DNA from: Asterochloris sp. CNOR1
Lineage: Eukaryota; Chlorophyta; Trebouxiophyceae; Trebouxiales; Trebouxiaceae
Reading direction: 5' to 3'
DNA: 64,000 nucleotides
Assembly: GCA_963969365.1 (NCBI GenBank)
Contig: OZ017747.1
Coordinates: 1,612,001-1,676,000, forward strand
A model generated the notes under the pieces. It had not been told where the DNA came from, ran no database searches, and saw only the letters and a list, made by a program, of their open reading frames with translations. A program made the translations under genes and the position numbers. Positions 3,352 through 62,900 of the stretch are shown piece by piece (the stretch's first letter is position 1; every line of letters starts with the position of its first letter).

Positions 3352-5394
3352 ATGGCAGGCATGGAGAACTACCGTCGCGTGGAACAGCCTAAGCCTGAGC
3401 AAGCAGAGGTTGCAGACAATGAGGTGGGCCATGGTCTGATGTAACCCCATGCACATCAAGCATGCCATGCTTGCAGATCCTGTGCAATGGAAATCAGCCA
3501 GCTTCCAAGTGTGGCCTACAGGTGCTGGTCACCTCCTCTGGACGAATGCGCAGCTACATTGCATACGCCACCAAGCTGCTCACGGTGCGGTTGCAAGCCT
3601 ATATCCAAACTCATATTGCAGCAAGCCAGTGTCACTCAGGCCCATGACAGGCGCTGCTGATTCTGAGTCCCACCACTCCCAGCTCCTGCCTGGCATATAC
3701 AGGATGGAAAGGACATAGTTGTCGTGAAAGGTATGGGGAAGAGCGTGGCAAAGTGCGTGGTCGTGGGCGAGATTGTCAAGCGGCGCATTCTGCATCTGCA
3801 CCAGATTGCGGAGATCAGTTCCATCAGGTGGGCTCCCTGTCAGCCCTGCCTGCAAAGCTGCTCCGCTCCAGAGCTGCTTGGCATCCATAGGGAGCCATTG
3901 CTGCCTCGCGTTTTAGACTTAGTTTTTAATCACAGGACTTACTTCACCTCTCTAGGGCCGGGCTTCTGCCTTCTGGCACCAGTTATTCCGTCAAGAAGTG
4001 TCCGCTGCATGGCTCTCCTGTGGCCCTGACTGTACCTTTTCACTCTTGATGCTGGAGCAGGCTGCCGTCTCCCAGCATTCATCAGGTGGGGCCAAGCTGC
4101 TGCATAGCTCACCGGCAGCCCTGCCTATGCCTCTCAATCCTGGGGCAGGCTGCTGCATCACGGCCTCTGGTTTGTTCCTGAAATGGAGGAGGCCCCCTGC
4201 CCTCAGCATGGGCAATCGTCCTGCCAGCGCAGCTGGGCTGCTGTGCTGAAGCCAGATGTGTAGCTCTGCGTGGGCAGTGTGCTGTGTGCCTGGCATCACC
4301 TTTTGCAGGGGCAGGTCAACCTCCTGGGTTGGGGGCCACTTGAGTCTGCTCTGCCTGCAACCGCAGCAGCACTTTTGTTGAGATTCACTCAGCTAGCCTG
4401 GGCTCCGGACTCCCATCGCCTGTGGTGGCTTACTGACATTATTTTGTGCGCTGCAGGGTGACGGATGTGTGGGAGCCACTGGAAGACGGGCTGACAAGGC
4501 TGGAGACGACGCGGCATGTCTCAGTACTCACAATCAGCTTGTCAAGTCAGGAGGTCAGCCTGCCCCTGTGTGCATCTCCACCCAGCCCTGCATGCAGGCG
4601 CAGGCCATCGCTGGGAGTGTCCACAGGTGCCTCTTGAGACAAGTATGACCATTGACTGCTGCTTCGGACTGCTCGTATGGACCCCACGATGCTGTCTCTT
4701 TAAGGTTTCGCCCGTACTGACTGCCTTGCACCTCGTGCTGCAGATGGATTCAAGTGTTCCAGGCTACCAGGCGCCCCTGCCTGCTGACCAGGTCAAGCCC
4801 CTGCAGGAGGGTCCAGCCCCTTCAGCATCGCAAGGTGGCAACGGGGACGGCACTGGCCGTGGCAGGGGACCAGGCAGAGGCCGCCGCGGCAGGTGGGCAC
4901 TCCTGATTCAGCTTTTTCCGCTCATGCACCTTGTGGTGCTTGGGTGCTGCTGCCTCAGCCTTGCCCCATCTTATGTCTTTTCATGCGGGCAGGTTGAGCT
5001 GAGGAGCTCTGCAGCAGGGCCCCTCACTCTGCGCTCCTCAGCCCTGTGCATGTGGCGACCAGAGCATGTGGCGACCAGAGCCGACAGTGCGCTGTCCCCT
5101 GCGCAGCGCTGCGCCTGGGAAACAGGGACTACTCTGCTGCTGTGCTTTGTCCCCTGCACACTCGTGCACTTGAGGTGGGCCCTGCCGGGCTGCTGTGCTG
5201 TGAGAAGCGACTGGCAAGCTGGCTATGGTGATGTAAAGGGCAGTTGTGCTGCTGGGCTGCTGTGCTGCGAGGAGAAGCTGACAGGCTGCCTCACCTCGTG
5301 CAGGGGCCGTGGCAGAGGGCGTGGACGGGGCAGGCAGCCGGGTCAAGCCCCAGCCCCAGCTCCTGGGCCGGTAGCTGCAATGGCAGTAGCCTGA
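3352..5394 (+). CDS. Alba-domain nucleic-acid-binding protein with RGG tail
   Basis: Exons at 3352-3423, 3477-3584, 3703-3827, 4457-4553, 4744-4892 and 5304-5394 join in phase to 213 residues. The first half is an Alba domain: LQVLVTSSGRMRSYIAYATKLL is followed by DIVVVKGMGKSVAKCVVVGEIVK and the RVTDVWEPLEDGL segment typical of the Rpp25/Mdp2 branch. The last third is low-complexity RGG/RGR, interrupted by one intron, and ends PAPAPGPVAAMAVA. Plant and protist relatives with this layout bind RNA or RNA:DNA hybrids in RNase P/MRP, R-loop control or translation; which applies here cannot be told. An in-frame ATG at 3361 is an alternative start. Confidence 0.9.
5048..5079. repeat. 16-bp tandem duplication in last Alba intron
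   Basis: Two adjacent copies of GCATGTGGCGACCAGA (5048-5063 and 5064-5079) lie in the intron before the last Alba exon. Confidence 0.85.
5188..5292 (+). repeat. Diverged intronic duplication, Alba last intron
   Basis: GGGCTGCTGTGCTGTGAGAA (from about 5188) recurs as GGGCTGCTGTGCTGCGAGGA (from about 5256). Both are followed by related GCTGGC/GGCTGC sequence just upstream of the final acceptor. Confidence 0.7.
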
Positions 5395-5874
5395 TGGCGC
5401 ACACACACACTTGTCTGTTTGCATTGTGTACAGCAGCCAACCTCTAGGCCAGTCTCATTCATAGCTGGAGGAGGGGCTGTCTGAGCAGTCTCACTAGGTC
5501 TGTACGAGAAATTCATGCACTTCAGGCCCAATAACCAGGGCTCGCCAGTCGCCTAGCGTGACCAGCAACAGAGCTGGTCTGCACACCAGTGTACCCCACC
5601 TTTTTCATGCAGTGGCGCAGTTCCCTCATCTGATCTTCCTCAAGTGTGCCATAGAGTACCTTTACTTCCCTATGCTGATTGCTAGGCAACCCTCTGCCTA
5701 GCAAATGGCATGCTTGAGGCTTGAAATTTTGCTAACTGACTGGACAGCACTCTGCCCAAGACTGCAGTAAGTTGCATTGCGCTTTGCCATATTGTTGAGC
5801 AATTCATTTGAAGTGCTTCAGATGTACTTGCTCCTTTCACTTCGACAGCTGGGCAAGATATGATGTCTGTTGAG
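5395..5874. other. Convergent intergenic region
   Basis: About 480 bp between the Alba stop and the stop of the minus-strand CCAR1-like gene, so it holds two 3' UTRs. A short (CA)n run lies at about 5399-5411. No TGTAA poly(A) signal was found on either strand. Confidence 0.5.
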
Positions 5875-11800: not shown

Positions 11801-14800
11801 GCGGATTGCTGTGGCGATGAGCGGCTTGCTTCCCCTGTGTGGTCGCGGACAGCGGTGGATGTCGAGTACTGTTGCTAGCTATGGAGGCTCACCAGGCGCA
11901 GGCACCAGCCTTCCACCAGAGGCAGAATGAACAGCAGCCCCAATGATTGTGAGGCTGGCAGCCATGGAGCTGGCAACTCCTGCAGGTGCCTGCTGTAGGA
12001 CACAGACAATCTGTCGCCTCCACGGCTGCACCAAAGCAGTCCTGGCTGACGGGACGGGAGTGGAAGGTGTCTGCTTGGAGCTGCCACAAACCTGGCTAGC
12101 GTGTGCCCAGCCAGGTGCCCTCTAAATGTGCACCCGCATGCACAACTGCGCTCCAATGACTGCAAGAGGACTGCGGATGCACATGCGCTGCTGCCAGCCA
12201 TGCACACCTGGCCCACCTGCCGTTGTACTCCCCGTCCAGCGCAGGGTCATGGGCACCCCCCACCAGGGCGATGCCCCCGCGGTCCTGCTCCTTCACCGGC
12301 CGCACAGTCAGAAAGCGCAGCAGCTTGTTCAGGTGCACCGTACTGTCCTTGTTCTCAGGGTCTGCCAGCATCTTCTGCAGGCCAGCTTCGGTCACGCCAG
12401 ACATCAGAGCCACCTGAAAGGTAGCAGCATGCAGCGGGGCGAGTAAGAGCAGCTCAGGGGATGCGGATCTGAGCCAACTATTGCACACAAGCTCGGTGAC
12501 GTTCAGCATCCGTGCGAGGTGGAAGCATCAAGTGCAGAATATTGAGAGAAGCAACACACTGGTGAGCAAGGTGAAAGCACTTTGCCATTTGCACAAAGAG
12601 TTCCCTGGCCAGCACAACCCCAGCCAGTCCAGACAGCATGGCAGGCATTGACAGGAGCTGCTGGGCGCGGCAGCTCATATGAAGCTCTCAGCAGGACTTC
12701 CCTGCTACTAACTGCGGGCACAATATGCTTGTGCTCTGCATTCAATCTCGACGTGTAGACTTGCCTGGGACCCTTGCAGTGTGCTCATGGTGGGGCTCAG
12801 ACTAGCAATGTACCTATGCTGGGCACTCAACCTGGCAGCGTGCTTGTGCTTGAGACCCGCCATGGAAGTGTACAGATGCCTTGGGCTCACCCTGGCAGTG
12901 TACTTGTGCTTGGCGCCTGTGGCGGGCTCAGGGAAGGTCTCGGAGCTTTCAAAGTCCACGTCGTGCTCATAGCTCACAGGGTTGTCCAGGGGCCAAAGCT
13001 GGCAGCCCAGGGTGCCCTTGCCACTGGAGGAGGCCTGCGCACCAGGCAGGTGTCGACTGGGTAAAGAAGCAAGATTCCTGGACCAAGCTACACACAGGTT
13101 GAGCAAGCAAGAGCTTGCAGCGGATGTGCTGCCAAAGCAACACTACCAGAACATGTACAGCACTCTACAGACAAAGACTGGGCCAGGCACACACCTGGGG
13201 CCAGCAGCATACAAACTTGGCGAAGTCAGGCACGATGTATAGCCTGCTGTGTCGGCGGGCAATCTCCATATAGTCCCTCTGCTCTGTCACAAAGTGGTGG
13301 CTGGGCACAGCCACATCGTATCGAGGCTCATACCTGCAGGCCATAAGTCGTTTTGGTACCTGAGCTGGTGAAGGCGGTCCACGGACGATGGGAACCATGA
13401 TGGGTCTCCATCTCAGTCTGTGGACAACCCAAGCAGATGCAGGGGCCCCCTTTGAGACACCCTAGAAGGTACAGCCATGCAGCTGCAGAGCAGCAAGCTG
13501 CTTGCACCGCACACAGCATAATGCAGCCCCCGCAAACAGGTGGCTACGGCACAGCTGGGGACAAGCACGCGAGCATTCGGCACAGATGATGAAGTGTTGC
13601 TGGCAGGCCTTACTTGCGAGGAGGGGGGTCAGGCCTGCGCACAGGCGACTTGCGGGGCGAGCGTCTCCTTTGAGGTTCTGCCCTGCAGCCACCAGAACAG
13701 CAGCTGTCAGTGAGGTGTCAAGTGGCTTGGTGCCAACCCCGCCAGGTGCAATCATTGCAGGGTCCCAAGTTCATGGTCAATGCCCATCAAGGCCCTGCCA
13801 CAGAGCAGCCACAACAGAGGGGCAAGCCAGGTCAGCAGGCATGGTCAATACACCAGAGCAGTCAGCAGAAGCGTTTGCGGTCAGGCCGGCCAGGACAGGC
13901 ACCAGGCAGGCCAGTGGCCCTTGCTACCAAGAAGCCCTGAATCACCAGTTGTGGACCCTGGTGCATGTGCCCATCCCCCAAATATACCCCAGGAAGGCAA
14001 ACCCTGTGGCCCCCACCTGACAGGGCGAGGCTCGCGCCTGGCACCCCTGTCCCGCCCGCCACTCTCACGCTCCGCGGCCACTCTAACGGCAGGGGCTGAC
14101 GGGTCAATGCCTGCCTCTCTCATGCGCTTCTCCTCCCGTTCACGCTCCATCTGACGGATGGCCTCCTTGGCGCCAGCCGCCGACACACCAAAGGACGGGG
14201 TCGCCGCACCAGCTGCAGAAGACAGATATGCAGCAGATCTTGGGCCAGCCACGTCACAGCAACCAGGGCACCCTTGGCACTGGCCATGAGAACACCACAG
14301 GAAGGGGTTTATGCACCTGCTGCAGCCCACCAGAAGCAGGTCTTGGCAGGCAGCCAGTGTGCTGGGGTTTCCAGACACCAACGACCTGAAGGCGTGAAGG
14401 TCAGGCCAGAAGCCGAGCAGGCATACATGTACAACAACCCCTTTGTGAAGCTGAGGCAAAGACTCTGCTGGAGCTGGCCTTGACTCTCCCAACTCCGCAG
14501 CTAACTGCATCCGCTGCGAGCAGGTGGGCTGAGGTCGATGGATCTGCACCCACCTCCACGACCCATGCCTCCTGCAGGCGCTCCGAACCTGCTGGGCGCA
14601 CCAGTGCCCCTGCTGGCCAAGGGTGCGGGGGCACCTGCAGCCAACAAGGGAAGGTTGAGTGCCAGTGCACACCAAGCAGCGAGCTTGACAGCAGGACTTC
14701 GGCCTGCCTGTTGTGTCGAGCAAGGTGCTTCTGATGAGCAACACGCAGCAAGCGGCTGTGTGGCCATTCCAGCTGGCCAAGCAGGGCCTGCTCTAGATGC

Positions 14801-17391: not shown

Positions 17392-20300
17392 ATGAGCCTT
17401 GTCTTTGATGAGTATGGCAGGCCCTTTGTCATCATCAGGGTGAGAGCAGGCCATTCTGCACTTGCTGAGCTGCACAAGTACAGCCATGTGCTGCTTCAGC
17501 CTCAAGCGGCATTGCACAGTGCTAGCTCCTTGCCACTAGTGCCAGCAGTGATCAGGCTGTGCACCTGGCGGCGCAATTCCCGAACAGCCGCATTCTCTCC
17601 CTGCAGGAGCAAGAGAAGATGCAGCGCCTGAGGGGCATCGATGCTCAGAAGGCCAACATACAGGCGGCCAAGGCAGTGGCGCGCATCCTGCGCTCCTCGC
17701 TTGGCCCCAAGGGCATGGACAAGATGCTGCAGAGCGGCGATGGGGACGTCTGTATTAGTGAGCTACCACCAATTGTGTCCAGCAGCAGCAGGCTTGAGGC
17801 AGCGGCTCTGATACCCCTGCATCATGGCCTCTATGTGCATCTGTACAAGTCGGCAGCCGTGCTCACTGCATTGGGAAAGTCAGCGGCATCCAGAGTGTTG
17901 AACATCCAAGTTAGCACGACATGAAGTTTTTGCAGCCCGTGGGGTGTCCTGCTCATCAGTCTGCCTATCCCCTGTGCTATGGCGCCGTACCTTGTCCCTG
18001 CACATGCAATCAGAGGGCCATGCCAAGCACCCCATCACAACCTTGCGGCTATTGAGCTGGCACGCTGTACTGGCCTGCAGCATGTCTGCTCCCTGCTGCT
18101 TTTGCTTAGCAGGCCTGCTGAGAACAACAACTCTGTTTCAAAATCTGATTGCCCTGATTGAGGTGCGCACGTGGCTGCATTGTGCATGTCTCTGCAGTAT
18201 GCAGGCCACCTGAGCACTATAATTCTGGTTGCAACCCCGACTGAGCATGACTGCTGTGCCTGCCTGCAGCCAACGATGGAGCCACCATTTTGGAGCAGAT
18301 GGAGGTTGACAATGAGATTGGCAAGCTGATGGTGCAGCTGTCCAAGTCGCAGGACCATGAGATTGGGGACGGCACCACCGGTGTGGTTGTGATGGCAGGT
18401 GGGTGTGGGGCTTCCTGCCTGATGCACCTCCGCCTGAGCCTGCTCTGCTTGCCTGGTGCTCGCGCAGGGGTGAGCCTGCATGCGCAGCAGCAGCACTGGC
18501 ATGGTGGGGATGGCAGGGAGTCGCTGCGGCTGTACCTGCTGTAGATTTTGGTCGAAAGCCCAGGACCGAGACTGCCCCTGTCCCAGCTCTGTGAAGTCTC
18601 ACGAAAAGCAGACTGCAGCCACTTTCAGGTATGCAAGCGTCTTCCTGAAGCAGGTGTCCCTGTTGCTGCGCCTGGGGTAACCTCTGTGCAATGTTTCTCA
18701 AGCAGAGTAATGCCTGGCGGGTCAGGTGGCTTTCAGTGTGAGCCTTACAAGCATTCTGACGTCGCTGCACCCTGCTGTGCATGCCTTACTGGGGCAGGCA
18801 GCTGTCAATAAATGCACTTTGGCGCTCGAGGGAGCAGTGTTGAGCCTGCCATTGCGTAGACGCCCTTCCCTGGTGCAGGCAGCGGTCAATGTTTGTTTGA
18901 AACAGGCACCCCAATGGAGCACGCAGCTGTGGAACCCAGCTTCTGGCTGAACCCAAGGAGCATTGCTGAGCTCAAGGAGCATTGCTGAGCCTGTCTCTGC
19001 TGTGCAGGTGCCCTGCTGGAGTTCAGGTTCTGTGGGAGCCAGGAGTGTGGTTGCTGTGCAGGCGTCTTGCTGAGGCAGCAGCCAAGGGTATGAGCTTCTG
19101 GCCAACTGGGAACAAGGTTCTTAAGCCTGTCATTGCTGTGCAGGGTCCCCAATGGAGCGGGCAGAGGTCACCGATATTATTCCAAGGGAGCAGTGCTAAG
19201 CCTACTGTTGCTGTGCAGGTATCTTGCTGAAGCAGGCAGGCGTATCGCCATGCTTCTGGCTGAACCTGTCATTGCTGTGCAGGCGCCCTGCTGGAGCAGG
19301 CGGAGGGGCTGCTGGATCGAGGCATCCACCCCCTGCGCATTGCAGAGGGGTACGAGATGGCTTGCAAGGTGGCTACTCAGAAGCTGGACGGCATTGCCAC
19401 GACCTTCCAGTTGGATGCCAACAACCTGGAGCCCCTCATTGCGCCCTGCATGACCACGCTCAGCTCCAAGATGTAAGAGAGCCTGTAGGCGACAATTGCT
19501 GTCTGAGCACGTTGGGCAATTGCTTGCTGTTCCAACATGCCACGCTGACCTGCATGAAGCAAGCGCCCCTGCACAAGTAGTGTCACATTCCATACATGAA
19601 CAAGTGAGCCCCTGCTGCCCTCTGTGCATAAGCAGGTGCCCTTGCTGTGCCCTTGTGGTGACCATGGTCAGCATGAATATTGGCAGCAGAAGCCAGCCCT
19701 GCCGTCCGGGCTGCCTTGGGTGCAATGCAGCCAGCTCTGCATTTCAGGTCAACTTTGAGGGGGGTGCTCGGCCGCTGCTCGCCTTGTACACCACCCGACA
19801 CGCTGCCCCTGATGCTGATGCAGTGTGGGGCGGCACAAGCGCCAGATGGCAGAGATCTGTGTGAAGGCTGTTCTGGCAGTGGCTGACCTGGATAGAAGGG
19901 ATGTCAATCTGGACCTGATCAAGGTGTGCACCCAGCAGTGCAATCTTGAGGGCTGTCGATCCCTTGTGGACGTCATGCTGCCAGTGAGGGTGGCAGCAGA
20001 GATTGCCGAACATGCATACAAGGCTGCTTGCTGTTGCTCAGGTGGGTGGCGCAGTGGGGTGTACAGGTAGAGGTTCTGCCAGCTGTCTGGCCGCTGGCAC
20101 TTGCCACGCGTGGACAGGCTGTGTGCGTCTCCTCCAGGGGCTTGCTGTGGAGTGTGGCAGGCTGCCAAGCATTCACCACAGCTGCCTGCCTGCCTGCCCA
20201 CAGCTGGATGACGCAGCTGGGTGACTTTATACAGGCTTGCCAATAGTGCCGGACCTCCTACTGCAGTCAGGCCTGCTGTGTACGCCAAGCCTGATGAACA

Positions 20301-23213
20301 CACAGCCATCCTGGGATGGCAGCCTGTGTGCAAACATCACCACTGCGCATGAGTGTCGCCCCAGCCTGCTGCCATGTCCAGAGTGTTGCTCTGCTTGTAC
20401 CCGTATGGCAAACGTTGGATTGCAGCAAACCAGGCACTGCCACATACGTCAACAGGCCGCTTGCTTGCCTGCAGGTGGATGGAAAGGTGGGTGGCAAGCT
20501 GGAGGATGCTAAGCTTGTCAATGGCATTGTGGTGGACAAGGACATGAGCCACCCACAAATGCCCAAGCACCTGAAGGATGTGAAAATAGCCATCCTGACC
20601 TGCCCCTTTGAGCCACCAAAGCCCAAGACCAAGCACAAGGTAGGTTCTGGCAGCTAGCTGACGATGTGTCAAGCATGTGCCTTTGATGTCAGACTGGTAG
20701 AGATGTCATGAGCCATGAGACCTGCTGCGTGCTTTGAGTGGTCTGCCACTTGCCATGGCAGGCGTGGTTCTGCAGGATGTCGCATGTGGTCCAGGCACGC
20801 ATCCACATGCTGTTTTCAGTGGCCTGAGAGTCAATGGGGTGCACTTTTGACGCCTCCCCTGATGCATGGCAACGGTTAGCATGTGGGCCGACATGCTGAG
20901 CAGCTGGCCTGCCCGGGGCTGTAACAATGTGGAGAAGGTCTCCGCACTCAGGAGCAAGCTGATGCCAGGCCTCATGTCACATGTCACATGTCGTGTCTTG
21001 GCTGCTGCCTGCAGAAGGCCATGCCTTTGGAGGCAGTACTCTTTGGCCAGCTTGAGACACACTGCACACTCGTCCTGAGCAGCAGCCTGCCCTTGGCGCA
21101 GGTGGATATTGACACAGTGGAGAAGTTCAACAGCCTGCGCGAGACAGAGAAGCAGTACTTCTTGGACATGGTCAAGCGCTGCAAGGATGCAGGAGCCACC
21201 CTCGTCATTTGCCAGTGGGGCTTTGACGACGAGGCCAACCACCTGCTGATGGCCAACGACCTGCCGGCTGTGCGCTGGGTGGGCGGCGTGGAGATTGAGC
21301 TGATCGCCATGGCCACAGGGGCTCGCATTGTACCCAGGTGGGGACAAGAGCATCAGCCAAGCTGGCGTGTGCATGATTGACATGGGGTGCATTGGCAGGG
21401 CTTGGCAATCAGGCGGGCACGGCTGGCTGCTATGGTTGTGGGGTATGACTTCATGCTCAGGTGATCGTGAGGGCTCTGCCAGATTTAATGGGTGCTGGCA
21501 TGGAGAGCTCGTTGCTACAGCCACAGGGGCGCACATTGTGTCCAGGTGCATTCTCGGCCAGAGCTGCAGCTCTTATGGATGGCAGCTGCAGCATGACAGC
21601 AGACTTCTTGTTATGTGCAACGCTTGGCAGGCTAGCTCAAGTCTGTGTGGTCAAGGCAAGTGGCATACATCATTTTGAGGTGGCTTTCTGGCGCCGCCTG
21701 AGGTGACTAAAACCGAGGTTGGAGCTTGCAATGATCACTTGGCGGTTGCTGTCTTGCAGGGTGAGCTGCATGGAATGGCTGCAACACATTACTCATGCAT
21801 TGTGTAGCGTGATGTGTGATCTGTCAGGCTTTGTAGAGCTGGTGCTGAATTGATGCCAAGGGTGTCAGCATTGCTCCCAGGGGGAGGCTCAGGGGCACCA
21901 CCAGGCTGGCCTGGCTGTGCCACTCTGCGCAGCCTTATTTTCCTGCCTTACAGCAATGGCCACCAGGTAAGCAGGATGCCTTGAGCGCTGCCACACCTGC
22001 ACAGAAGGTCCAGCAGCAAGCCGTGAAGCCTGCTGCTGTGCAGGTTTGAGGAGCTCAAGCCTGAGAAGCTGGGCTCAGCAGGCACAGTGCGGGAGCTGTC
22101 CTTCGGGACCACCAAGGACCACATGCTGGTCATTGAGGACTGCCCCAACTCAAAGTGAGTCCTGACAATGCCCAGCCTGATGTGGCTAGGGGTGTCTCTG
22201 GCCGTCTCAGAAGACAGCAGGAGGTGCCTGATTGAGCTGCGGATGCTCTGATGATGCATTGCCTGCCATGCCCTTGCTTCACTGGTGAGCAGGACTAGGT
22301 GCGGAAATTTTGTCTGCCTGCCTCACGACTTCAGACAGCAGGCTGCATGCCTTGCATCCTGCCTGATTTTCAAGCCCTTTTGTGACTGCTTGCCCCACCT
22401 GCAGGGCAGTGACGATCTTTGTGCGTGGGGGCAACAAGATGATTTTGGACGAGATCAAGCGCAGCCTGCACGATGCACTGTGTGTGGCCCGTAACCTAGT
22501 GCGGGACAACTCCATCGTGTATGGCGGCGGCTCAGCAGAGATTGCTAGCTCCCTGGCAGTGGAGGCTGCTGCAGATGAGGTGGTGGGCGTGGAGCAGTAC
22601 GCCATGCGCGCCTTTGCAGGTGGGCTGGGGCCAGACCGGGCAGCTGTTTGAGATGATACAGCAGGTCTGGACCTCACGCTTAGCACCACTGCATGGCGCA
22701 GGCTTGCTGTGGGCAGGTCGCTGCAGATGAGGTAGTGTACATGGCGCAGTGCGCCTTGCGGTTGAGCGTGATACAGGCTTTGCGTGGAGACAGCGACAGC
22801 TCAAGCCCCGCTGGACCTTGGAACGTGCTACGCATCAGCCCTGTGTGTGGCATTTGCAGGCTTTGCTTCGGCAGAGAGTCATGTCCTCTATTGTGGGAAG
22901 GATTTACGTGTCCTGACAGCAGCTCAGGTCATGTTTGCTGCCTGCAGATGCACTGGATAGCGTCCCTCTAGCCCTGGCTGAGAACTCTGGCCTGGAGCCC
23001 ATCCAGAGCTTGACCGAGGTCAAGGCGCGGCAGCTCAAGGAGGGCAACCCCCACCTGGGCATAGACTGCAATGATGTGGGCACCAATGACATGAAAGAGC
23101 AAAACGTTTTCGAGACACTCAGCAGCAAGAAGCAGCAGATGTTCCTGGCAACGCAAGTGTGCAAAATGATCTTGAAAGTGGACGACATCATCCAGCCCTC
23201 CCAATATGACTGA
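17392..23213 (+). CDS. CCT5: T-complex protein 1 subunit epsilon (chaperonin CCT5)
   Basis: One of eight subunits of the cytosolic ATP-driven chaperonin that folds actin, tubulin and other proteins. Ten exons (17392-17439, 17607-17757, 18270-18398, 19283-19472, 19824-19923, 20475-20639, 21102-21337, 22044-22154, 22405-22619, 22948-23213) join in phase to 536 residues, close to the usual 535-541. Visible are the start [16 protein letters not shown], the [10 protein letters not shown] motif, [10 protein letters not shown], the ATPase [12 protein letters not shown], the epsilon-typical [10 protein letters not shown] and [37 protein letters not shown], and [19 protein letters not shown] near the end. 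Introns 3, 7 and 9 contain copies of neighbouring exon ends. Confidence 0.97.
18985..19304 (+). repeat. Ladder of decoy acceptor/exon-start copies, CCT5 intron 3
   Basis: Just before the real exon 4 acceptor (GCTGTGCAG|GCGCCCTGC at 19274-19291) come four degraded copies of the same block: about 18985-19021, 19048-19081, 19114-19164 and 19191-19242. Each has a CTGTGCAG-like site followed by sequence like CCTGCTGGAG. Spacing is roughly 45-80 bp. Confidence 0.85.
21506..21552 (+). repeat. Echo of CCT5 exon 7 end with donor
   Basis: GCCACAGGGGCGCACATTGT followed by GTCCAGGTGC repeats the end of exon 7 (GCCACAGGGGCTCGCATTGT plus ACCCAG|GTGG at 21310-21340). It lies about 210 bp downstream, inside the intron. 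Confidence 0.85.
22719..22768 (+). repeat. Echo of CCT5 exon 9 end
   Basis: The intron sequence would encode [15 protein letters not shown]. It mirrors [15 protein letters not shown] at the end of exon 9 (22564-22619). Confidence 0.85.
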
Positions 23214-49400: not shown

Positions 49401-50211
49401 GCTTCACCTTGTGCTATGCGCTATTGTGCCGCTGACCCAAGCCTCTACTGCTATCCTCCTGCACAAATCATGCTGCGCTTGGCTGGGCTGGGTGCTGATG
49501 AGTTGCACAGCTGCACAAATGGCCAAGTACCTGCTGCCTCACTGCTGCAGGCGCATCACGCTGCCCCTGGATGGACAGGCTGCTGATGAAGAGATCAAGC
49601 TGGAGCACCTGATGAAGGACGACAGTGTGTATTTCTACTCTGAGCTTCCCAGAGTCAATCCACGCTTCAAGGTAAGTTGCATCCCTTTGGCACCTCCGTT
49701 GTGACCAAGACCAGCAGCAGGTCTTGGTCTGTGTACTCTGCCCCACCGTGCTTATCAGCTGGCATTTCATTGTGAGCCACCCAGCAGCAGTGTCTGACGG
49801 CTTATCTCAGCAGTAGAACTTGCTGTGCAGCCCTTCAACAGCTGGCCGTGCTCTCATGCTTCCAGCTCAGCATGCTGGTTGTGGCTGCAGGGCATGCCTT
49901 ACCGCTATGCCTACAGTGTGGCGGGCAGGCCACCCTGCTCTATTGGCAATGCGCTGGCCAAGTTCGATGTGGCCCAGGGGGCGGCTCAGCTGTGGCACGA
50001 GCCGGGCACAGTGCCTGCTGAGCCAGTCATGGTCCCTAGGCCGGGCAGCACTGCAGAGGATGATGGAGTGGTGCTCAGCATTGTGATGGGCAATGAGGGA
50101 CAGTCCTTTTTGTTAGTCCTGGATGCTGCCTCGTGGCAGGAGGTTGCTCGCGTCAACGTGCCGTTTGGTGTTCCATTTGGCTTCCATGGCAATTTCCTGC
50201 CCCGCAAGTGA
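46435..50211 (+). CDS. CCD8-like: Carotenoid cleavage dioxygenase, CCD8-like
   Basis: Iron-dependent enzyme cutting carotenoids or apocarotenoids. The recognised core starts at 46946 (VEPVDLKIRGQLPEWLDGDY, then IRNGPG). It continues with HMFDGYGMLVKFGF (over a GC-donor intron at 47222), FVQSEAFKYF, GFTDNASVNVF, SPHPTMLPNGDLINIVY (first His), FSWVHDFPATQNWAVVPQ (second), FMAVHYINSFE (third), ELPRVNPRFKGMPYRY, and the last His in FGFHGNFLPRK with TGA at 50209. The fit is best to the CCD8 branch: FDGYxxLV, WVHxFPxTxNWxVVP and HYIN. Whether it makes carlactone cannot be judged. The N-terminal exons are inferred: the ATG at 46435 starts a transit-like stretch, and ...FTEDIAPDE can join VEPVDL in phase through a GC donor near 46793. 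The exon between about 48810 and 48850 is also uncertain. Confidence 0.85.
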
Positions 50212-50445: not shown

Positions 50446-53400
50446 ATGCACCTTGATCTAGCTCAGCTGACAGATGCTGGTGAGCCAGTGCTGCTAGCTG
50501 GAGAGTTGCAGCAATTCCTGCTGGTGAAGGTAAGTTGCTGCGCATGTTGAGCCCTTGACCAGGACCTGCAAAGCTAAAGCCTCGGCTGCAGACCTCTCTC
50601 GAATTCGAAGGGGCAGGAGGCATCTGGCCTGCTGTAGACACTCAACAGAGCAAGCATGAGGTGGGCCTTCCACCTCCAGATGAGGCAGCAAATCCCTGGC
50701 AGGTCGATGCCTGCCACGACTTGATTGCCATGCAAACTGGTTGTTATACATCTTTGTTGTAGAAGGCCTGGGTTGGTGCCATGCTGCAGGGAGGCAATGC
50801 TGTGCTGACCACACACAGGGTCCTGTGGCTGGACTCAGCAGCAGCTCCTGACTCAGGAGCATCATGCATGATCCCACTGAGTGCCGTGCACAAAATAGAG
50901 CTGCGCAGCTCGATGGTCCTGAAATCGCCCAAGATCAGGATCTATGTCTATGTGGGCCAGCATGGCCGCCCTGCACCAGGCATGTCTCAACCTCCATGTA
51001 ATGACGCCTTGCAATTCAGTTGCTTTCTGCCTGCTCAGGGCGTCTGCCATCTCTGCGTGCACGCTGTCAGTCGCCAAGCCTGCACATGCTACCGTGGCTT
51101 AAGCTATGAGGTGATGTACCCAGTCCTGTCTGTCTGCTACTGACGGGGGACCAGTAGCTATTGACTGTCCCAAATGACCTCTGCAGACAAGCAGGACTCG
51201 GTGCGCATCGATCAGGTCAAGCTGTCAGCCCGCAGCAACATGCAGGCCTTCGTGGACGCCTGCCAGCAGGCAGTGCAGCAGCGGGCCTGGGCTCGTCCAG
51301 CAACGCAGGCACACCAGCCCCAGCCCTGGGCTGCCTCTCTCCATGCTCAGCCACTAGCTGAACCCCCTCAGGCGGATGCTGGCAGCTGGGGCGCCGCTAT
51401 TGCCCTGCCAGGGCAGCCTCCGCAGCAGCAGCAGCAAGGGCAGGCTGCAGCGGTTGTGGACCCCCAGGTCGTTGCCCAGCTACAGGTTATGGGCTTCAGC
51501 TTCAACAGCGCTTTGAGGGCAGCCATGAACACTGGCAACACAGGTATGTCACATGGGGATCCCGCTGTGTTAAGGAAAATGTTCCTTCAGTGTGCTTGCC
51601 TTACCTTTCAGGCTGTGGGTTGTGGACTGGTGGTCTCTGCCAACCTGCTCTTGCCCCGTCGCATACTTTGAATGCTGACCTCATACTCCATTCTCCCTGC
51701 AGGGCCAGACCAGGCAGTGCACTGGCTGCTGCAGCAGGAAGCTGACCCACAGCTGCAGGATCCCCTGCCTGGGGTGCAGGCCTCACCTGCCCCATCAGCA
51801 GCCCCGACGATGCACTTTGCGCCCTCAGCAGCTGGGGTGGCCGGCATCCTGCGCCGGGAGCAGGAGATGGCAGCCCAGTCTGATGCGTGAGTGCCATGCC
51901 TGCTTCTGCCTTGCAGAATTGGGGAGGTGTGTCTGATGCCACAGAAGGCAAAGCAGCTTGGATGCAGTCTCCAGGCCCTGGTGGTTCTTTGGTAACTGGA
52001 AAGCCTGCTTCTTGGTTGGGTTAAGCTTGTCAGCTATACTGTGCTGCCACCAAGACTCCTGCTTGACGTACCTTGTTGGGGCTCTGCAGCAGTAGCTGCA
52101 AGGCTCTCATGCCGCTGAAGGTCGCCTGGCACATGTTCAAGCATCTGCGCGTCCCCTGATAGACAAGACAGGCACTTTCTAGGCAGTGGCAACATGTGAT
52201 GTTGTGCTGCAGGTCCCTGGTGCTGCTCTGTCTGGAGCCACAAAGACTGCAAGTCCCACAAGCATGATTTTGAGGATCTGCCGGCCCTGATGGCCAGGGC
52301 AGCTGCCCTGCAACAGTCGTCTGATGGCCTATGCTGCTGCAGGTCCCTCGAGCACGCCTTCAAGGACCTGCGTGGCCTGATGGCCAAGGCAGCCGAGATG
52401 GTGCAGCTGGCCGAGCGCTTTCGTGGACGCATTGCGGAGCAGAGCAGCACTGATGATGCAGACGTGCAGGAGTTCCAAGAGAGCGGGTTGGAGGCCGAGC
52501 TCATCCAGATGGGCATTGCCAGCCCCGTCACCAAGGAGACTGCTGGTGTCATGTACCACCAGGAGCTGGCCCGCCAGGTGGGCGAAGTGCAAGTTGCCTG
52601 AACTGCACAGCTGCCGCTCGAAGCCTGCCATCCTTGTGTTCATGGCCTTTTGCCCCATTTGTTCATGAGGAGCTGGCCCCCACCAGGTGGGCTGTGTGTG
52701 GCAGCACTGGAGCTGCAAGCTGGGAGCTCAGGCACCGTCTGTCACTGCACAGCTGTAAATTGATGCTCTGTAGCAGAGCCCAAGCGCAGCAGCCGTGGCT
52801 GTGTTGAGGATCCAAGTTGTTTTCCTCCTGCTGGTGTGTATCCTCTGCACAGTATCCAGCAGGCTTTGTGATTTTGCACTGCTCAAGTCTGCACATGTAT
52901 TTGCCAGTTTGGCACCATCAGTAACAACAGCTTAAAGCTTGCTGGGCCCCTGCTGGCCCCTGCCTTCCAGGACCTGCAGGCAGGCAGACATTGACATGCA
53001 AAAAGCCATGCTGCAGCTGTCCATCTTCCTGACCACACCCCTTGACAAGGCTGGCGGCCTTCTGGCCTTGACAGACGTGTACTGCATCTTCAATAGAGCA
53101 CGCGGCACAGAGCTGGTGTCCCCAGACGACCTCCTGGCAGCAGGCAAGCTCTTCCCACAGCTGGGCGCCTCCATGCAGCTCAAACGTTTCACCAGCGGCG
53201 TCCTGGTGGTGCAGTCCAACAGCCACAGCACAGAGCAGGCAAGCTTGGCAGTTCTGGCATGCACACTGAGCAGCTGTGCCCAGCTGCAGCCGTTCCTGGC
53301 AGAGCAGGTGCTGTGCATGTCTGAGTGGTGCTTTTCCCCTGTCTGCAGGTCTGCACAAGGATTGGTGAGATGGTGGCCACTCCTCGCGGTCTTGGCCCTG

Positions 53401-54167: not shown

Positions 54168-57100
54168 ATGGCTGGCATACCAGCTCAGTTCCTGAACAAG
54201 TCTGTTGAGCGGGGCAATGATGACTTCCCCAAGGTGCCACTCATCATCAGGAAGGGCCCTCCTCCAATGCTAGGAGGATCCTCTTCTGCGGCACCTTCCA
54301 CCCCTCTGCAACCTCGCCAGTACAGGCTGTCACCTCATTCCAGCTTGCCATCTGTAGCTTCCACGTCCAGCACCTCAACATTGGAGAGCGACATTGAAAT
54401 CCTGAGCCTGCGTTCTCAGCTGCAGAAGCTGCGTAACGATCAATTTGCCGCCCAGCAAGAGGTGAGCAGGATCTGGCTGAACCTTGATCAAGGACTCAGA
54501 GACAACCTTGTACTATAATGTTGCATGCCTGCTCTGCAAGCCAGCACTGGAAGTCTGGCAGCACGCTTCAAGTTGCATTGGCAACAATGGCCTGGAACCT
54601 TGCCATGTGTGTGGCAGCAGTGACCTGACACAGCCCTCGTGGGCTGTCATTTCATGCTCAGCTGTGTCTTGACCGGCTGTAAGGCTTGCAAGCCAGAGAA
54701 ACCCCTTCTGGCATGCAGGTTGCTCAGATGCGCAAAGAGCGCGCTGAGGAGCAGGCAGAGGTCAAGGCGCTGGCCGCCAGCTATGAAAGCGCTGTGGAGC
54801 AGGCCCAGGCACAGCATGCTGCCGCCCTGCGGGCCGTACAGCAGCGCCAACAGGTGCAGCTGACTGCCCTGCAGGAGCAGCTCAAGGCACAGGTACGGGC
54901 TTGGGTTGCCTTTGCGCCTCCTGTGGGGTATTATGGCCAAGGCTGCGTTGGCTGTCAAGGTCTGCGCCTGTGGAGGACATGCAAGCAGCAGAAGGCAAGG
55001 GAGGCAGCTGCAACTACTGGCCCACCAGCTCTGTTTCTGTGTGCATTGTGCAGCGCAACTGTGGCATTGAGGTACAGGCGACTGTGGTGTTTGGTTTGTG
55101 TCCCTTCCTTGCCAGAAAGCATCGAGCTATGTGCCTGTTGTGAACAAGCCGTCTCAGCAGCAGCCGAGATGGGCCACCAAGGGCAGCTGCAGCTGTCAGG
55201 TCTGCACCCAGGCTGTCTCCTTGTGCAATGCGCAGCATAGCCAGAGCAGCAAGCACGCTGCTGAGCCCATCAAGCACCTCAGCGCCTCATGCTGCTGACT
55301 ACAGGCCCAGGCCAACAGAATGGAGCTGCAGTGCCATGAGGCAGCCCTGGAGGCCCAGGCTGACGCACACAATGCCAAGCTGCTGCTGACCAAGGCTGGG
55401 CATGCCAAGGAGGTGGATGCCATGCAGCAGGAGGTGGCTGCAAAGGAGCAGCAGGCCATCAGGTTGCAGGAGACTATTGATGCCATGGCAAAGGTGTGAT
55501 TTTGCTATTCCTCATGAGCCTCTCATTGCTGCCAACTGGAGGCCTGGCATTGCATAGGATGATCTTGCTGTATATGCCAGCACAGCCACACAGGATTGCA
55601 AGCAACTCGGCATTTGTCTTGCTGTTTGCACAGGGCCTGCCTGGTTCCATCAGCTCTGTAGTCAGCCTTGACTGAGGTTGTGAACTGAGTCTGGTCTGCC
55701 TGGCTGCAGGCCGACGAGGAAAATGCAACACTGAAGGAGCAGCTCTCTATGCTGCGTCAGAGCCACAACTTGTCCATGAAGCGGCTGCAGGTGAGGCAGA
55801 CCGCCCCAAGTGGCTCAGCTGAGGGGCCATGCCCAATGCTGCTGCTTGACATGCCTATGCATGGCCTATGCATTGGGGAGCATTGCTGAGGGGCATCCAG
55901 GCTGCTGGTCACGTGCGGTTTACCCTGCATTGCATGGCGCATGGCTTCCTACTGAAAGCTGACTCCTGTGCGTGCACTTGAGGGCAGGGCTACGGGCTGA
56001 GCTGCCCTGCTTGCCGCAGCGCATTGTGCCAGGGCCTGCTACAAGGAGAATGACTGCTGTGCTGCCTGCCCTGCAGCTGCACTTCTCCCAGCAGAATGAA
56101 GACATGCACAGCTTGCAGACTCAGCGAACTGAGCTGGCTGAGCAGCTGGCCGCAATGAAGAAGGCCATGGAAGCCAGGCAGGCGGAGGTGAGCAGCCCAG
56201 CAAGACTGGTTGCACACTGTGGGCTGTGTTCTGTGGTAGAGGTTCTCACATCTTGTGGTCTGCGACAGGGAACTTGTGAAGAACCCTGTGTCAGATCTCC
56301 GTCTACTTCAGCCTCTGCCCCTCCAAGCAGAAGCAACTCCCAAGCAGTAGCATTGTCCTGGGTCAAAGGTTAACAGGCCACCGTAAGCTGTTCAGATCAG
56401 CCCAAGCATTCACAGCTTGTGTGCCCACGCAGCTGCGCAGCCCATACCACCTGTGCAGCTGGGCCGGCCACCTCATACCAGGCCACAAAGGTGCCTGGTA
56501 TGTGTATATGCAGGTGGAGGAGGTGACTCAGGAGGCTGCAGCCTTGAGCCAGGAGGTCAAATCGCTGCACACCCGCCTGGAACTGCAGGAGGGGCACCAT
56601 AGTGACCAGCTGCAGCAGATCAGTGATCACCACGCAGGTGGGGGCACCTGGCGTGCTAGATCTTTCTCATGATGTCAGGCAGGGTGCTGCGCCACAATGC
56701 CAAGCAGGCAGGACGACTTGGCAGTATGGGAAGCACCTGTTGCCCGACCTCTTGTCCCTGTCATCTGAAACCAGCTGACCTCTGGGCCAGTCTATGACGG
56801 CTGCTGGGTGCTGGGTCGCCTGCTAGGCTGTAGGCCAGTGATGCAGCGGCGCTCCTCATATTTGGTGCAAGCCCTAGCTGCACACCCATAGTCTGACATC
56901 TCCCCCTGTGTCCTTTGCAGCTGAGCTGCGTGAACTGAAGCAGAGTACCCTGGCAGACAAGGGCAAGGCGTCCTCTTCCTCCAGCAGCAACAGCATTGCA
57001 GAGAAGACAACAGAGCTGGCTGCTGAGCTGACCGAAGTGGTCCTGCAGCTGCAGCAGTACAAGGCCAGGAATGCTGACGTGAGTGGGGCATGCCTGGTGT

Positions 57101-57839
57101 TCCTGCCTTTGGAATCTAAAGGTTGTCTGCCCTGCAGCCGCAGCGGTACAAGGCGAAGAACGCTGTTGTGAGTGGGGGCTGGCTGTGTTGGGGTCTGTCT
57201 GCAGGCTGAATGCCCTTCTCTGTCCTCAGGCTGGGCAGACCAGGACGCGGCCAGGCCAGGATTGGCGCCATTTGCCGTCTTCCATCATGCTTGATGTTGT
57301 TCCAGGGGGAAGCTGTCAGTCTGGAACTAGCCGAGCGCCAGCATTGCGCTGAGGCAATCAGCCCTGGACCCAATCTCTTTCTGCGGCCTCAACCCAGTAC
57401 ATCTTTGCACCCCTGACCCGACCTGTCTTTGCCTGCAGCTGAAGCATGAGAGGGACAAGCTGCGCGGCATGGTTGAGCTGTTCAAAAAGACCATCAGCAA
57501 GGAGATGCTATTCCAGATGCAGAGGCGCCAGGTGAGGGCCCCGAAAATCCCTCTCTGCCGCCAGATGGATGTGTATCCCTGGTTGTGGGGCAATGCCTCC
57601 CAGGCCCAGGCTACCAGCCTTGCGCGGGGCATGGTGCGCCTGAGCCCTTGCAGCCAGCATCAGTGCTTGCCCTTGTGTCTGCTCTGCAGGAGTTGGGCAC
57701 CAGCAGCCCCCCTGACCGCAGCAGCAGCAGGCCGCACCGCACCACCAGCAAGCTCACGGCTGAGGCCCTGGCCCAGCAGCAGCAGCAACAGCAGCAGCGT
57801 AGGTCTAAGCTGAAGGGCCAGCAGTCTGGTCCTTGGTGA
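54168..57839 (+). CDS. Coiled-coil protein of unknown function
   Basis: Nine exons (54168-54461, 54719-54892, 55305-55493, 55710-55790, 56077-56187, 56514-56637, 56921-57078, 57439-57531, 57690-57839) join in phase to 457 residues. The first 85 residues are Pro/Ser-rich (SSSAAPSTPLQPRQYRLSPH). From IEILSLRSQLQKLRNDQ onward it is almost continuous heptad coiled coil (MRKERAEEQAEVKALAAS, AKEQQAIRLQETIDAMAK, QTQRTELAEQLAAMKKAME). A short conserved-looking block LKHERDKLRGMVELFKKTIS is followed by a Ser/Arg tail with a poly-Gln run (QQQQQQQQ near 57773-57799). It has no signal peptide or membrane segment. It could be a Golgi, centrosomal or basal-body scaffold, but nothing allows a choice. Confidence 0.85.
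57128..57176 (+). repeat. Echo of coiled-coil gene exon 7 end and donor
   Basis: CAGCGGTACAAGGCGAAGAA then CGCTGTTGTGAGTGGGG mirrors CAGCAGTACAAGGCCAGGAA then TGCTGAC|GTGAGTGGGG at 57053-57088. The copy sits about 90 bp downstream in the intron. Confidence 0.9.
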
Positions 57840-59909: not shown

Positions 59910-62900
59910 TCACTGTGCAGCCTGTCTGAGTCGCCGGCCCTGCACCAGGTTGGTGCCTCCTGCTGAGGGTGGCCTGGAGCCTTTGCTGCCCCGAATTGCG
60001 TGCATGATGTGCGCCTGAGGTTGTGCTGTCTGAGCAGATGCCGGGCGCCTGAAGCCCGGCCGCTGCGTGAGCACCTCGGCCGCCGCCTGGGCGGCCACCA
60101 TCCTGGGCTGCAACACAGCCGGTGGGGTGCTCCTGCAAGGCGTGACAGTGCAGCACAGTCGGCCCTGACTGGTCATTGTGCATGTTGAATGGGTGCGCCT
60201 TGTCAGCACTGAGGAAGCATTGCCAGCATCAACACAGCCAGGCGCCCTTCCCAGATGATGGGCTGCCTCGCAATGATCTTCAACAGTGGGGGTCACTTTC
60301 CCACATCAATATTTGCTGGACGTGCAAGACATGCTGCTGGCAGCTGCCCGCCTGCCTGTGTCACCTGCTGGTGGACCCCAAGCTCTCATCTGCTGCGCGG
60401 ATGGATGTCCTCCCGACAGAGAGTGCCCTGTCCAGCCTGGACGAGCTGCGCACCCGTGGCGAGGACACTGGCGACTGCTCCTGGCTGTGTGCCGAGGGCT
60501 CCCCACCCTCACTGGCCTCCTCATCAGTCTCCAGCACTGTCTGCTCAGCAGCGAGGGAAGTCTCACTTGAGCAGCACTGTGTTCGCGTCAACAAGGGCCT
60601 CAAGGAAGCTTGCTGACACCACAGGATCCTCCCAACTCCTGCTGCAGGGCTCTACTGCATTTGATAGGCTTGACTGGTGTAAGGAAGGTCGTGAGCTGGG
60701 CCGATAACACAATGCATTGAGCATTGCAGACCAGCAGATTAGCTCACTGCCAGCTGGCCCATCTGCTCCCACTGCATGTGCCACAGCTTAGCCTGTATCA
60801 AGGGTTAAACCCGCAGGAGTGCAGGCCAGCAGGCGGGCCTGCTCAAAGGCCCTGTCCACTGGCAGTCGAGGCCAGTCAGCTGTCTGGTGGCCCACCTGCT
60901 CCTGGAGCGCATGCCGCAGCTCCTGGATCTCGTGCTGCTGCATCTGCACCATGTCGCTATTGGCTGCCAGGGCCCCCATCAGCTCAATCATGCGCTCTCG
61001 CTCCCCGCAGACCAGCTCGTTCAGGGCCCTCGCAGGGCTGCCGCGCACCACAGCGCCGTGTCTGCAGCCAGGGTATCTTGAGGCATCATGCATTGCGCCT
61101 GCACGGGATTAAGGGTGCCAATCCGCCTTCTGCAGGGCATGTGCACTTGCGATATGCTTGAGCACACAGGTGTAGCAGGCATGCCAGTGGCCTTGAGGCT
61201 ATCAACCCGCCTAATGGCTTGCCTGCTTGCCCCAGCCGTCTGAGGCCTTGTGCCTGCCCTGGAGGCTGAAAGAGGCCGTCCAGGGAGCTGCGTTGCAGTT
61301 CCTGGGCGGGTCTGCAGCGCGCTGAGCGGGCCCAGGGTGGAAGCCCCAGCAATGGCCCTGTCGCCTGTGGCAGTCTCAGGCGGGCTCGGCCTGCTGCTCA
61401 GGTACGTGCTGTGTGGAACTGGCTGCCCTTCACCGGCCTGCAGCGCAGCAGGACTGGCTGAGGGCTGTGCCAGAGCAGGCTGAGAGGGCTGCTCTGCTGA
61501 CCCACATTCTGTGTGACAGCGCCCCTATCAGACAGCAGCGCTGCATGCAGTGAACGCACGCGCTGCTATCTGTGGCTGGGGCCCTTGCTGTGGCCTGTGG
61601 CACTGAAGCAAGTCGGCTGCCGCCCCTCAGGCATGCCCAAGCAGGCGCAGCTTCTCCTGCTGTGGCCTGGACCTGTTCCATGTAATGCAATTGGCACACA
61701 CTCTTCCAAGGGGCAGGCCATGCACCCTACATGCTGCCCTGATGCATGGCCGGAGGCTGACTTGTGCACCATACTTGAAGCCCAGGCATCTCACCTGGCG
61801 CTTGTACTCATCAAAGGCAAACTCCAGCTGGCGCAGCTCCTGCTGCTTGTGCCCCAGCTCGTGGCGCAGGCCCTTCTGCTCGCGCCGCAGGTCGGCCACC
61901 TCCCGCAGCAGGCCCGCATTCTCCGTCACCTTGTCCCGCCTGGCCTGCAGGCAGTTAAGCAGGTCCCACCTGCAGCCATGCTGGCAGTGCAGGCTGCCAG
62001 GATGGCACAAACAGCTTGGGAGTTCACTCCCAGCTGGCACCAGTCAGCTCCATACGACAGACATCTTCAGCTGCGGTAGTGGTGCAGCACAGCTGCCAGT
62101 GGGAGCTGCCTGCTGCTGAAGCATCTCCAAAGGGCTCACTTCCTAGCCTGCAGCCTGGTGCTTGCCTCTGAAGTGTCAACAGACATGCCTGATGGTGACT
62201 TGAGCGCCTCAGACCAGCACAGCACCTGTGCAGTATCCAGGCTGCATGCCATCACCCCTGCACAGGGCACCCCAGACAGCCAGCCATGACCATGGCAGGC
62301 CGCAGCTGTGGATCAGGGACATGTCCCATGTCCCACATGCCCCCCCAACGCTGACCTGCTCGGTCGCCTTGCTGGCCTCCCTCACGCGATGCTTCAGCAG
62401 AGTGTTTTTGATCTCCACCACATCACGCTGCCGTGTGAGCTCCTTCTCCACTGCCGCGTCCAGCTGGCTTGAGTGGGTGTCGCAGTACCGTGCAATCAGC
62501 TGCTCCAGGGCCTGCAGACAAAGTAAGACCACAGGACTCATCACCAGTTTCGCACGAACCCCTCCAGCTGCGTTCAGCCGGCTGGGATGGCTTGCGCAGT
62601 ACCGCGCAATCACCTGCTGCACGGAGGACATACACCTTGTCATTCTGCATGAAGCAGTGCCTGCATGAGGCCAGACAGGGCTGGGTTGTTTGGGCTGAGC
62701 TGATCAAATTTGCAGTCAAAGCTGCTCAGCACAGCAGGGATGCATGCACACAGGCGTGGCCTCTGCTGGCTTGGGCAGGTTGCATGGTGTCAAGGGATCA
62801 GCCGATCCAGCACCTGCAGGGGAGGCATCCATACAGCCAGAGTAAATTCTAGATTGCTGTCTTTGATGCCCCAGCAGCAGCTGCCTCTTGCATGTCAGCC

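What the first reader, a model, noticed from the sequence alone, without database searches (positions are those of the whole stretch)
5188..62615. Introns carry degraded copies ('echoes') of neighbouring exon ends, with splice sites, in at least nine genes
Reading across introns, I repeatedly see a second, diverged copy of the adjacent exon edge. Some lie upstream of an acceptor and copy the acceptor plus exon start: CAO exon 6, VPS36 exon 5, ABC1 kinase last exon, LACS exons 11 and 12, CCT5 exon 4, CFAP57-like. Others lie downstream of a donor and copy the exon end plus donor: CCT5 exons 7 and 9, CCAR1-like, coiled-coil gene exon 7. Offsets are about 50-210 bp, single or in ladders, and a weaker intronic duplication occurs in Alba. 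The pattern suggests ongoing small tandem duplications across exon-intron borders. Such duplications could create or lengthen introns (the tandem-duplication model of intron gain), shift exon edges, or supply decoy splice sites. I know of no description of it as a genome-wide habit in a green alga.
Basis: partly seen in the sequence, partly recalled or inferred. Interest (0 to 1): 0.85.

Follow-up and report, generated by a model that had tools for sequence, protein, structure and literature searches.

The report
Old local duplications lengthen algal introns
Introns of this green alga hold worn copies of the neighbouring exon's edge, most likely left by small side-by-side DNA duplications long ago, which shows a concrete way in which introns can grow longer without changing the protein.

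Summary
In 264 kb (window plus four 50-kb blocks), 63 of 429 introns carry a diverged direct copy of their own exon edge; introns of similar length from elsewhere predict about 2, and inverted matches number 2.

Best explanation: ordinary tandem duplications (offset median 140, range 39-419) that happened to span a splice site. Splicing kept the outermost site, so the mRNA stayed the same, the intron grew, and the trapped copy decayed neutrally. Evidence: direct orientation; co-duplicated intron sequence in some cases; no codon signature and 21 of 52 copies out of frame; border and internal events as expected from random placement (55:38, expected 51:42). Introns with echoes are twice as long (465 v 237).

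RNA and related algae could not be examined.

The parts
26250..26651 (+). CAO: intron 26250-26619 with acceptor echo; echo core 26542-26570 copies exon edge 26623-26651 (offset 78-81), alignment 52 nt intron + 32 nt exon
   Evidence: Rieske/PaO Pfam
52247..52393 (+). VPS36: echo 52247-52303 of exon start 52337-52393 (offset 90, 77%); echo acceptor AG reads AA
   Evidence: Vps36/EAP30 Pfam
42784..42916 (+).
   Evidence: gene models; ABC1 Pfam
35417..35697 (+). LACS acceptor ladder in intron 34779-35669: copies at 35417, 35492, 35549/35563 and the exon edge 35665-35697
   Evidence: AMP-binding Pfam
36553..36853 (+). LACS next acceptor ladder: 36553-36609, 36642-36691, 36686-36757, 36762-36853 (predicted exon from 36823)
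18976..19296 (+). CCT5 exon 4 acceptor ladder (18976, 19046, 19112, 19187, exon edge 19251-19296)
21297..21548 (+). CCT5 exon 7 end + donor 21297-21340 and echo 21505-21548 (offset 208, 77%)
   Evidence: the exon copy is the one closer to a CCT epsilon chain
22563..22760 (+). CCT5 exon 9: 22563-22608 near the exon end (predicted at 22619) and echo 22715-22760 (offset 152, 80%)
12793..12914 (-). CCAR1-like donor ladder, offsets 30/60/90, intron 12375-12890
57042..57185 (+). coiled-coil gene: exon end + donor 57042-57096 and echo 57131-57185 (offset 89, 82%)
62453..62624 (-). CFAP57-like acceptor: exon edge 62453-62510 and echo 62567-62624 (offset 114, 78%)
4004..4164 (+). Alba gene: local duplications 4004-4037/4099-4132 and 4043-4076/4131-4164; one copy overlaps a predicted 25-nt exon (4061-4085) that may be false
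5182..5291 (+). Alba gene: duplication 5182-5224/5249-5291 inside predicted intron 4893-5303 (offset 67, 79%)
32451..32650 (+). further acceptor echo (LACS, intron 32168-32599), offset 153-158; alignment 55 nt intron + 51 nt exon
37464..37606 (+). further donor echo (LACS gene, intron 37499-37788), offset 88
40783..40974 (+). further acceptor echo (ABC1 gene, predicted intron 40728-40942), offset 138, plus 35-nt ladder
49467..49589 (+). further acceptor echo (intron 49354-49550), offset 86-88
32820..32951 (+). young tandem duplication inside LACS intron 32788-33245: 63-nt unit, 98%; 6-nt repeated end
32955..33068 (+). second young tandem duplication in the same intron: 56-nt unit, 100%; 2-nt repeated end

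Best explanation
Short tandem duplications (about 40-400 nt) arose throughout the genes without regard to borders (inferred from placement). A unit that spans a donor or acceptor yields exon edge + splice site + intron, twice in a row. If the spliceosome keeps the outermost site, the mRNA is unchanged and the inner exon copy is trapped in the intron, which is longer by one unit. The trapped copy then decays neutrally while the true exon copy is held by selection, so the pair stays recognisable at the exon edge after the intron parts have drifted apart. Duplications inside exons are mostly removed unless in frame. Most events date from a past period; few are recent. Shown: local direct copies, their placement, neutral-looking decay, link with intron length, lack of young copies. 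Inferred: use of the outer splice sites (from coding models and homologues, no RNA) and the break-repair or slippage step that makes the duplications.
For: Excess over controls and over inverted copies (183 merged direct events v 10 inverted). Copy rate peaks at the exon edge and falls to or near background from 80 nt inside the exon (introns >=150 nt; donor 29/340 centred at -20, 19/347 at 0, 6/347 at +20, 1/258 at -80; acceptor 21/347 at 0, 2/262 at +80). Well-kept cases align over half to all of the offset and run 50-115 nt into the intron (C3 26429, C3 39852, C3 44430, C5 612, C8 38401, window 26250 and 32168), which rules out copying from spliced mRNA for them. Intron part co-duplicated at p<=0.05 in 16/62. 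Border:internal 55:38, expected 51:42. Differences by codon position 0.253/0.218/0.283; of 52 echoes, 21 have a net frame shift and 5 an in-frame stop. 37/43 exon-exon pairs have offsets divisible by 3. Intron length 465 v 237; share of introns with an echo rises from 2/82 (70-150 nt) to 17/30 (>=600 nt). Forward simulation: duplications aged 0.25-0.45 substitutions per site with 0.1 indels per substitution reproduce exon identity (0.76 v 0.77 observed) and intron extension (>=20 nt: 0.42 v 0.47; >=40: 0.19 v 0.18); copies of the exon edge alone do not (0.08-0.10; 0.02-0.03). Neutral-like spectrum, ts:tv 0.99, CpG decay.
Against: Only about a quarter of echoes show the intron side of the unit; a first power calculation predicted 47-88%. 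Agreement came only after modelling the detection threshold and an old age, and that fit is imperfect (median exon part 36 observed v 51; length/offset 0.41 v 0.62; intron side at p<=0.05 0.21 in that run v 0.32). With 0.2 indels per substitution, or ages 0.35-0.6, intron extension is too low (>=20 nt: 0.26 and 0.11). After detection by exon alone, intron-side identity is only slightly raised (0.416 v 0.362, p=0.01, n=32), and the reciprocal test was not significant (n=9, p=0.15). Ladder spacings are uneven. Exon-versus-intron pairs without the border inside the match also occur (22, 36 expected at random). Gene models are my own HMM, without RNA. The age gap rests on five blocks; a few internal pairs of intermediate age exist. 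Ten inverted pairs exist, five of them in C3 and four of those within 22.6-23.0 kb.
Confidence: 0.85

Rival explanations
1. Repair-mediated capture: break repair copies nearby DNA, exon edges included, into introns, not strictly in tandem.
For: Known in primates, with closely linked duplicates that include partial exon/intron segments (PMC2671141, passages); uneven ladder spacing; intron side often not alignable.
Against: Capture has no obvious reason to prefer direct over inverted copies (inference), but inverted matches are few (2 edges v 66; 10 pairs v 183). Insertion of edges alone does not reproduce the intron extension.
Confidence: 0.08
2. Echoes are functional: alternative (mutually exclusive) exons or decoy splice sites kept by selection.
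For: AG kept in 21 of 30 acceptor echoes and GT in 13 of 36 donor echoes; 23/30 acceptor and 16/36 donor echoes score above background; some frames stay open (CCT5 exon 7).
Against: No clear codon-position signal, 21/52 net frame shifts, 5/52 with an in-frame stop; donor echoes weaker than the real site in 33/36, acceptors in 22/30; the alignment seed itself favours kept splice sites.
Confidence: 0.04
3. Artefact of composition or of gene models: TGC/CAG-rich sequence and splice consensus match by chance, or the 'introns' contain missed repeat exons.
For: TGC-rich sequence; my gene finder appears to take echo sequence as exon in places (ABC1, coiled-coil gene).
Against: Other introns of similar length give 0.17-0.26% at the same score; far-offset controls are near zero; identity runs well past the splice motif in the best cases; neutral-looking decay in echoes.
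Confidence: 0.02
4. Intron gain by tandem duplication of exonic AGGT: the echo marks the birth of the intron.
For: An accepted route elsewhere (PMC3443670, PMC4974935, passages); a slight excess at score >=12 (3/405 v 0.17% of controls).
Against: It requires offset = intron length and likeness of the two splice regions: 0/405 at >=14, control 0. The echo offsets are well below the intron length in nearly every case listed.
Confidence: 0.01

Closest known systems
Border-spanning tandem duplication in potato RdRp (Ma et al. 2016, PMC4974935; passages seen)
   Same: A tandem copy that includes an upstream intron-exon structure with its splice signals; the paper also notes an 83-bp tandem duplication wholly inside an intron
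   Different: There the copy made a new intron and exon and is recent; here the copies stay inside existing introns, are old, and occur in about 15% of sampled introns
Tandem genomic duplication model of intron gain (Rogers; reviewed in PMC3443670; passages seen)
   Same: Same mutation type
   Different: Its signature (offset = intron length) was not found at score >=14; here introns are lengthened rather than created
Repair-mediated duplication by capture of proximal DNA (PMC2671141; passages seen, part of the abstract among them)
   Same: Local duplicates that can include partial exons and splice sites; the abstract reports decreasing intensity during primate evolution
   Different: [quoted passage not shown] here copies are overwhelmingly direct
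Small tandem duplications at staggered breaks, CST-Pol alpha or Pol theta (PMC8355091; passages seen)
   Same: Plausible molecular source of short tandem duplications, some with terminal microhomology
   Different: Shown in human and mouse cells at induced breaks; not tested in this alga

Membership tests
Short tandem duplication | Second copy in direct orientation close by | tested here: met
Short tandem duplication | Copies abut: aligned length reaches the offset | tested here: inconclusive
   Met for the two young units and several well-kept border cases; over all 66, length/offset has quartiles 0.23-0.72, which I ascribe to decay
Short tandem duplication | Border units carry intron as well as exon sequence | tested here: met
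   For a part: 16/62 at p<=0.05; simulation approaches the data only if intron is co-duplicated
Tandem-duplication intron gain (Rogers model) | 5' and 3' splice regions alike at offset equal to intron length | tested here: not met
   0/405 at >=14, control 0; 3/405 v 0.17% at >=12
Mutually exclusive or duplicated functional exons | Frame and codon-position constraint in the second copy | tested here: not met
Mutually exclusive or duplicated functional exons | Spliced into mRNA | not testable with these tools
   no RNA data held
Introner or transposon insertion | Many copies elsewhere in the genome | tested here: inconclusive
   One echo-bearing region (57000-57600) matched only itself in the 56.4-Mb genome; other echoes were not searched genome-wide
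Repair-mediated capture | Copies in both orientations, not strictly adjacent | tested here: not met
   Inverted edges 2 v direct 66; 10 inverted pairs v 183 direct events in 264 kb. Both orientations as a defining feature is my reading

The most novel reading that the evidence does not exclude
A past burst of small tandem duplications, fixed at random over the genes, built a large share of today's intron length in this algal lineage: after correcting for decay, roughly 150-290 border-spanning events per 429 introns (my arithmetic: 63 introns divided by a detection rate of 0.22-0.41 for ages 0.25-0.45), plus internal ones, with little since.
Probability: 0.4. Interest if true: 0.7.

Novelty: new variant of a known kind. 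Interest (0 to 1): 0.5.

Why it matters
How introns lengthen without obvious transposon insertions is seldom visible. Here the exon edge acts as a conserved ruler: one copy is held by selection, so very old tandem duplications that would be invisible inside an intron can still be counted, oriented and roughly dated. This gives a general test that can be run on any annotated genome (own-edge versus other-intron matches by intron length), and a route to ask whether intron growth came in bursts. It also warns annotators: fresh echoes can look like exons to gene finders.

Tried and rejected
Intron-gain signature: none at >=14, a slight excess at >=12. Repeat-induced mutation as a reason for the lack of young copies: rejected, since C->T (0.124) does not exceed T->C (0.137) and ts:tv is 0.99, with CpG decay only. 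Exon-edge-only insertion: rejected by simulation. Constant birth rate: rejected in three settings, with the caution that the model leaves out gene-model errors; one setting (indel/sub 0.2) gave an unstable total (1590), which I do not use. A simple power calculation spoke against the duplication reading before thresholds and age were modelled. One search was a faulty alignment print (edge overlapping its own target) and is ignored; one search was read in a frame other than the exon's and is not used; one search failed on a file name. Co-occurrence of internal and border events in one intron (10 of 63 v 12 of 366; p=0.0004) loses significance among introns >=300 nt (p=0.19). No eukaryotic comparison genome is held: the assembly has no relatives here and the 14 control genomes are prokaryotes. 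The nine paper searches listed nothing whose title or abstract describes this pattern in a green alga; the library lacks most subscription papers.

Rows dropped before counts: introns with a flanking exon <24 nt (446 kept), then introns <70 nt (429 left); genes under 100 aa; introns <150 nt (intron-gain test: introns <45 nt or exons <40 nt). The splice-site counts include echoes with no or only one aligned letter at the site (acceptors 2 and 2 of 30; donors 8 and 5 of 36). Recent tandem copies are a clustered list, so close neighbours are hidden (32820 is one).
Full report
Setting. The window is contig C2:1612001-1676000 of a 56.38-Mb, 21-contig assembly. GC is 58.6% (from the base counts). 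Size, GC and intron-rich genes agree with what is printed for Asterochloris glomerata (56 Mb, 56-62% GC over 98% of the genome, nine introns per gene; PMC6652019, passages), but I did not prove the species. Gene models come from a hidden Markov gene finder that I wrote and self-trained: 78 genes of at least 100 aa and 446 introns with both flanking exons of at least 24 nt. Pfam recognises the window protein pieces that I tested (8 of 8), and a 241-aa CCT5 piece aligns over its whole length with solved CCT epsilon chains.

Is it there? Yes. Without any annotation, the window holds 45 self-matches of score >=18 at offsets 30-300; four equally wide far-offset controls gave 1, 0, 0 and 0. The other blocks hold them too, unevenly: C1 is poor and C3 rich (echo-bearing introns 4/84 v 22/63; heterogeneity p=4e-6). 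Exon edges match their own intron at score >=16 in 30/429 acceptors and 36/429 donors, against 1.1 and 0.7 expected from other introns; reverse complements gave 1 and 1. Ten loci around chaperonin exons found by a Pfam search, outside the window, gave 3 of 16 introns at >=16, one of them in a neighbouring gene; no null was run for that small set.

What is copied? A profile of 40-nt probes in introns of at least 150 nt shows the rate highest at the exon edge (donor 29/340, acceptor 21/347), lower in the intron (6-12 of 317-347 for probes centred 20-60 nt away) and near background 80 nt or more inside the exon. The best-kept pairs run through the border for 50-115 nt of intron, so DNA, not spliced RNA, was the template there. 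For the 62 echoes with a long enough unit, the intron part resembles its predicted partner at p<=0.05 in 16. A naive power calculation expected more (47-88%). When the whole history was simulated, detection included, full-unit tandem duplications of age 0.25-0.45 substitutions per site came closest to the observed mix of exon identity and intron extension. Insertion of exon edges alone did not, and neither did a constant supply from age 0 to 0.6. The fit is approximate and depends on the indel rate: with 0.2 indels per substitution the intron extension is too low.

Why at borders? They do not seem to be targeted. Dropping the same 183 pairs at random in their blocks gives 25.9 pairs with one copy across a border and the other in the intron (43 seen), 36 pure exon-intron pairs (22 seen), 50 intron-intron pairs (44 seen), 19 exon-exon pairs (43 seen) and 16.5 intergenic pairs (8 seen). 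Given each event's offset and host intron, random placement of tandem units predicts 51.4 border events of 93; 55 were seen. Border events are visible for longer because the exon copy is held by selection: ungapped identity at the echo offset is 0.575 over 30 nt on the exon side and 0.420 on the intron side (the detection window favours the exon side, so this contrast is partly built in). Duplications inside exons survive mainly in frame (37/43 offsets divisible by three), and border sequence copied into the exon, which would lengthen it, is rare (5/728, null 10/6637).

Are the echoes used? In 52 echoes with at least 27 exon nucleotides, differences fall nearly evenly over codon positions (0.253, 0.218, 0.283), 21 have a net frame shift and 5 an in-frame stop. 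In CCT5 exon 7 the exon copy agrees with CCT epsilon chain 4b2t_E at 12 of 14 residues and the echo at 9 (my count). Many echo acceptors still look like splice sites (23/30 above background), donors less so (16/36); mostly they are weaker than the real site. Occasional decoy use cannot be excluded without RNA.

What did it do? Introns with an echo have a median of 465 nt, others 237; the share with an echo is 2/82 at 70-150 nt, 8/135 at 200-300, 19/47 at 400-600 and 17/30 at 600 or more. Subtracting the offset leaves a median of 302. Lengthening is therefore the visible effect. Creation of introns is not: the required signature is absent in 405 introns at score >=14, though 3 reach 12 (0.7% against 0.17% of controls).

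When? None of 66 exon parts is at least 95% identical and two are at least 90%. A constant birth rate in the same simulation predicts 19-25 of 66 below divergence 0.1, where the fit places 0-0.8; by hand from its detection rates, about 9 of 66 should reach 95%. Because young echoes might be taken as exons by my models, I also scanned without models: near-identical tandem pairs with units of at least 30 nt number three loci in the clustered list, plus the 63-nt unit next to one of them. Two of the four lie side by side in one LACS intron, and none spans a predicted border. So the supply fell, or fixation was easier in the past. The spectrum of changes is ordinary, with CpG decay, so rapid targeted mutation of duplicates is not the reason. 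Among nine internal pairs aligned over at least 0.8 of the unit, two are >=95% identical, four 80-85% and three 65-75%, so I call it a marked decline rather than a full stop.

Mechanism of origin. The two young units end in 6-nt and 2-nt repeats, compatible with end joining or slippage; two cases prove nothing. Tandem duplication at staggered breaks is established in mammalian cells (PMC8355091, passages). The assignment to any pathway in this alga is inference.

Place among known things. The mutation is known, a border-spanning case is described in potato (PMC4974935, passages), and local repair duplications are known in primates (PMC2671141, passages). New here, as far as my nine searches go, is the density (about 15% of sampled introns, over half of those of 600 nt or more), the placement test, and the old age profile. 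Whether other algae look the same is open, and this limits the score.

Noticed in passing
window 32820-33068: Two near-identical tandem duplications (63 nt, 98%; 56 nt, 100%) lie 3 nt apart in one LACS intron; no other near-identical tandem pair with a unit over 30 nt appeared in the clustered scan of 264 kb.
   Followed up: partly
blocks C1:1000001-1050000 (L002-L006), C3:1000001-1050000 (L007-L011), C8:500001-550000 (L017-L021): Echo density and intron length differ between blocks (C1 4/84 echoes, median 218.5 nt; C3 22/63, 303 nt; C8 13/78, 321.5 nt).
   Followed up: partly
264 kb sample: CpG is depleted in introns (observed/expected 0.31) and exons (0.47), and C->T/G->A change at CpG is 0.244 v 0.087 elsewhere between exon and echo, which may mean methylated gene bodies.
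   Followed up: no
264 kb sample: About one in ten predicted donors is GC rather than GT in the self-trained model; may be partly a gene-finder effect.
   Followed up: no
window 42784-42916 and 57042-57185: The gene finder seems to have taken echo sequence or a shifted border as exon, a likely trap for automatic annotation of this genome.
   Followed up: no
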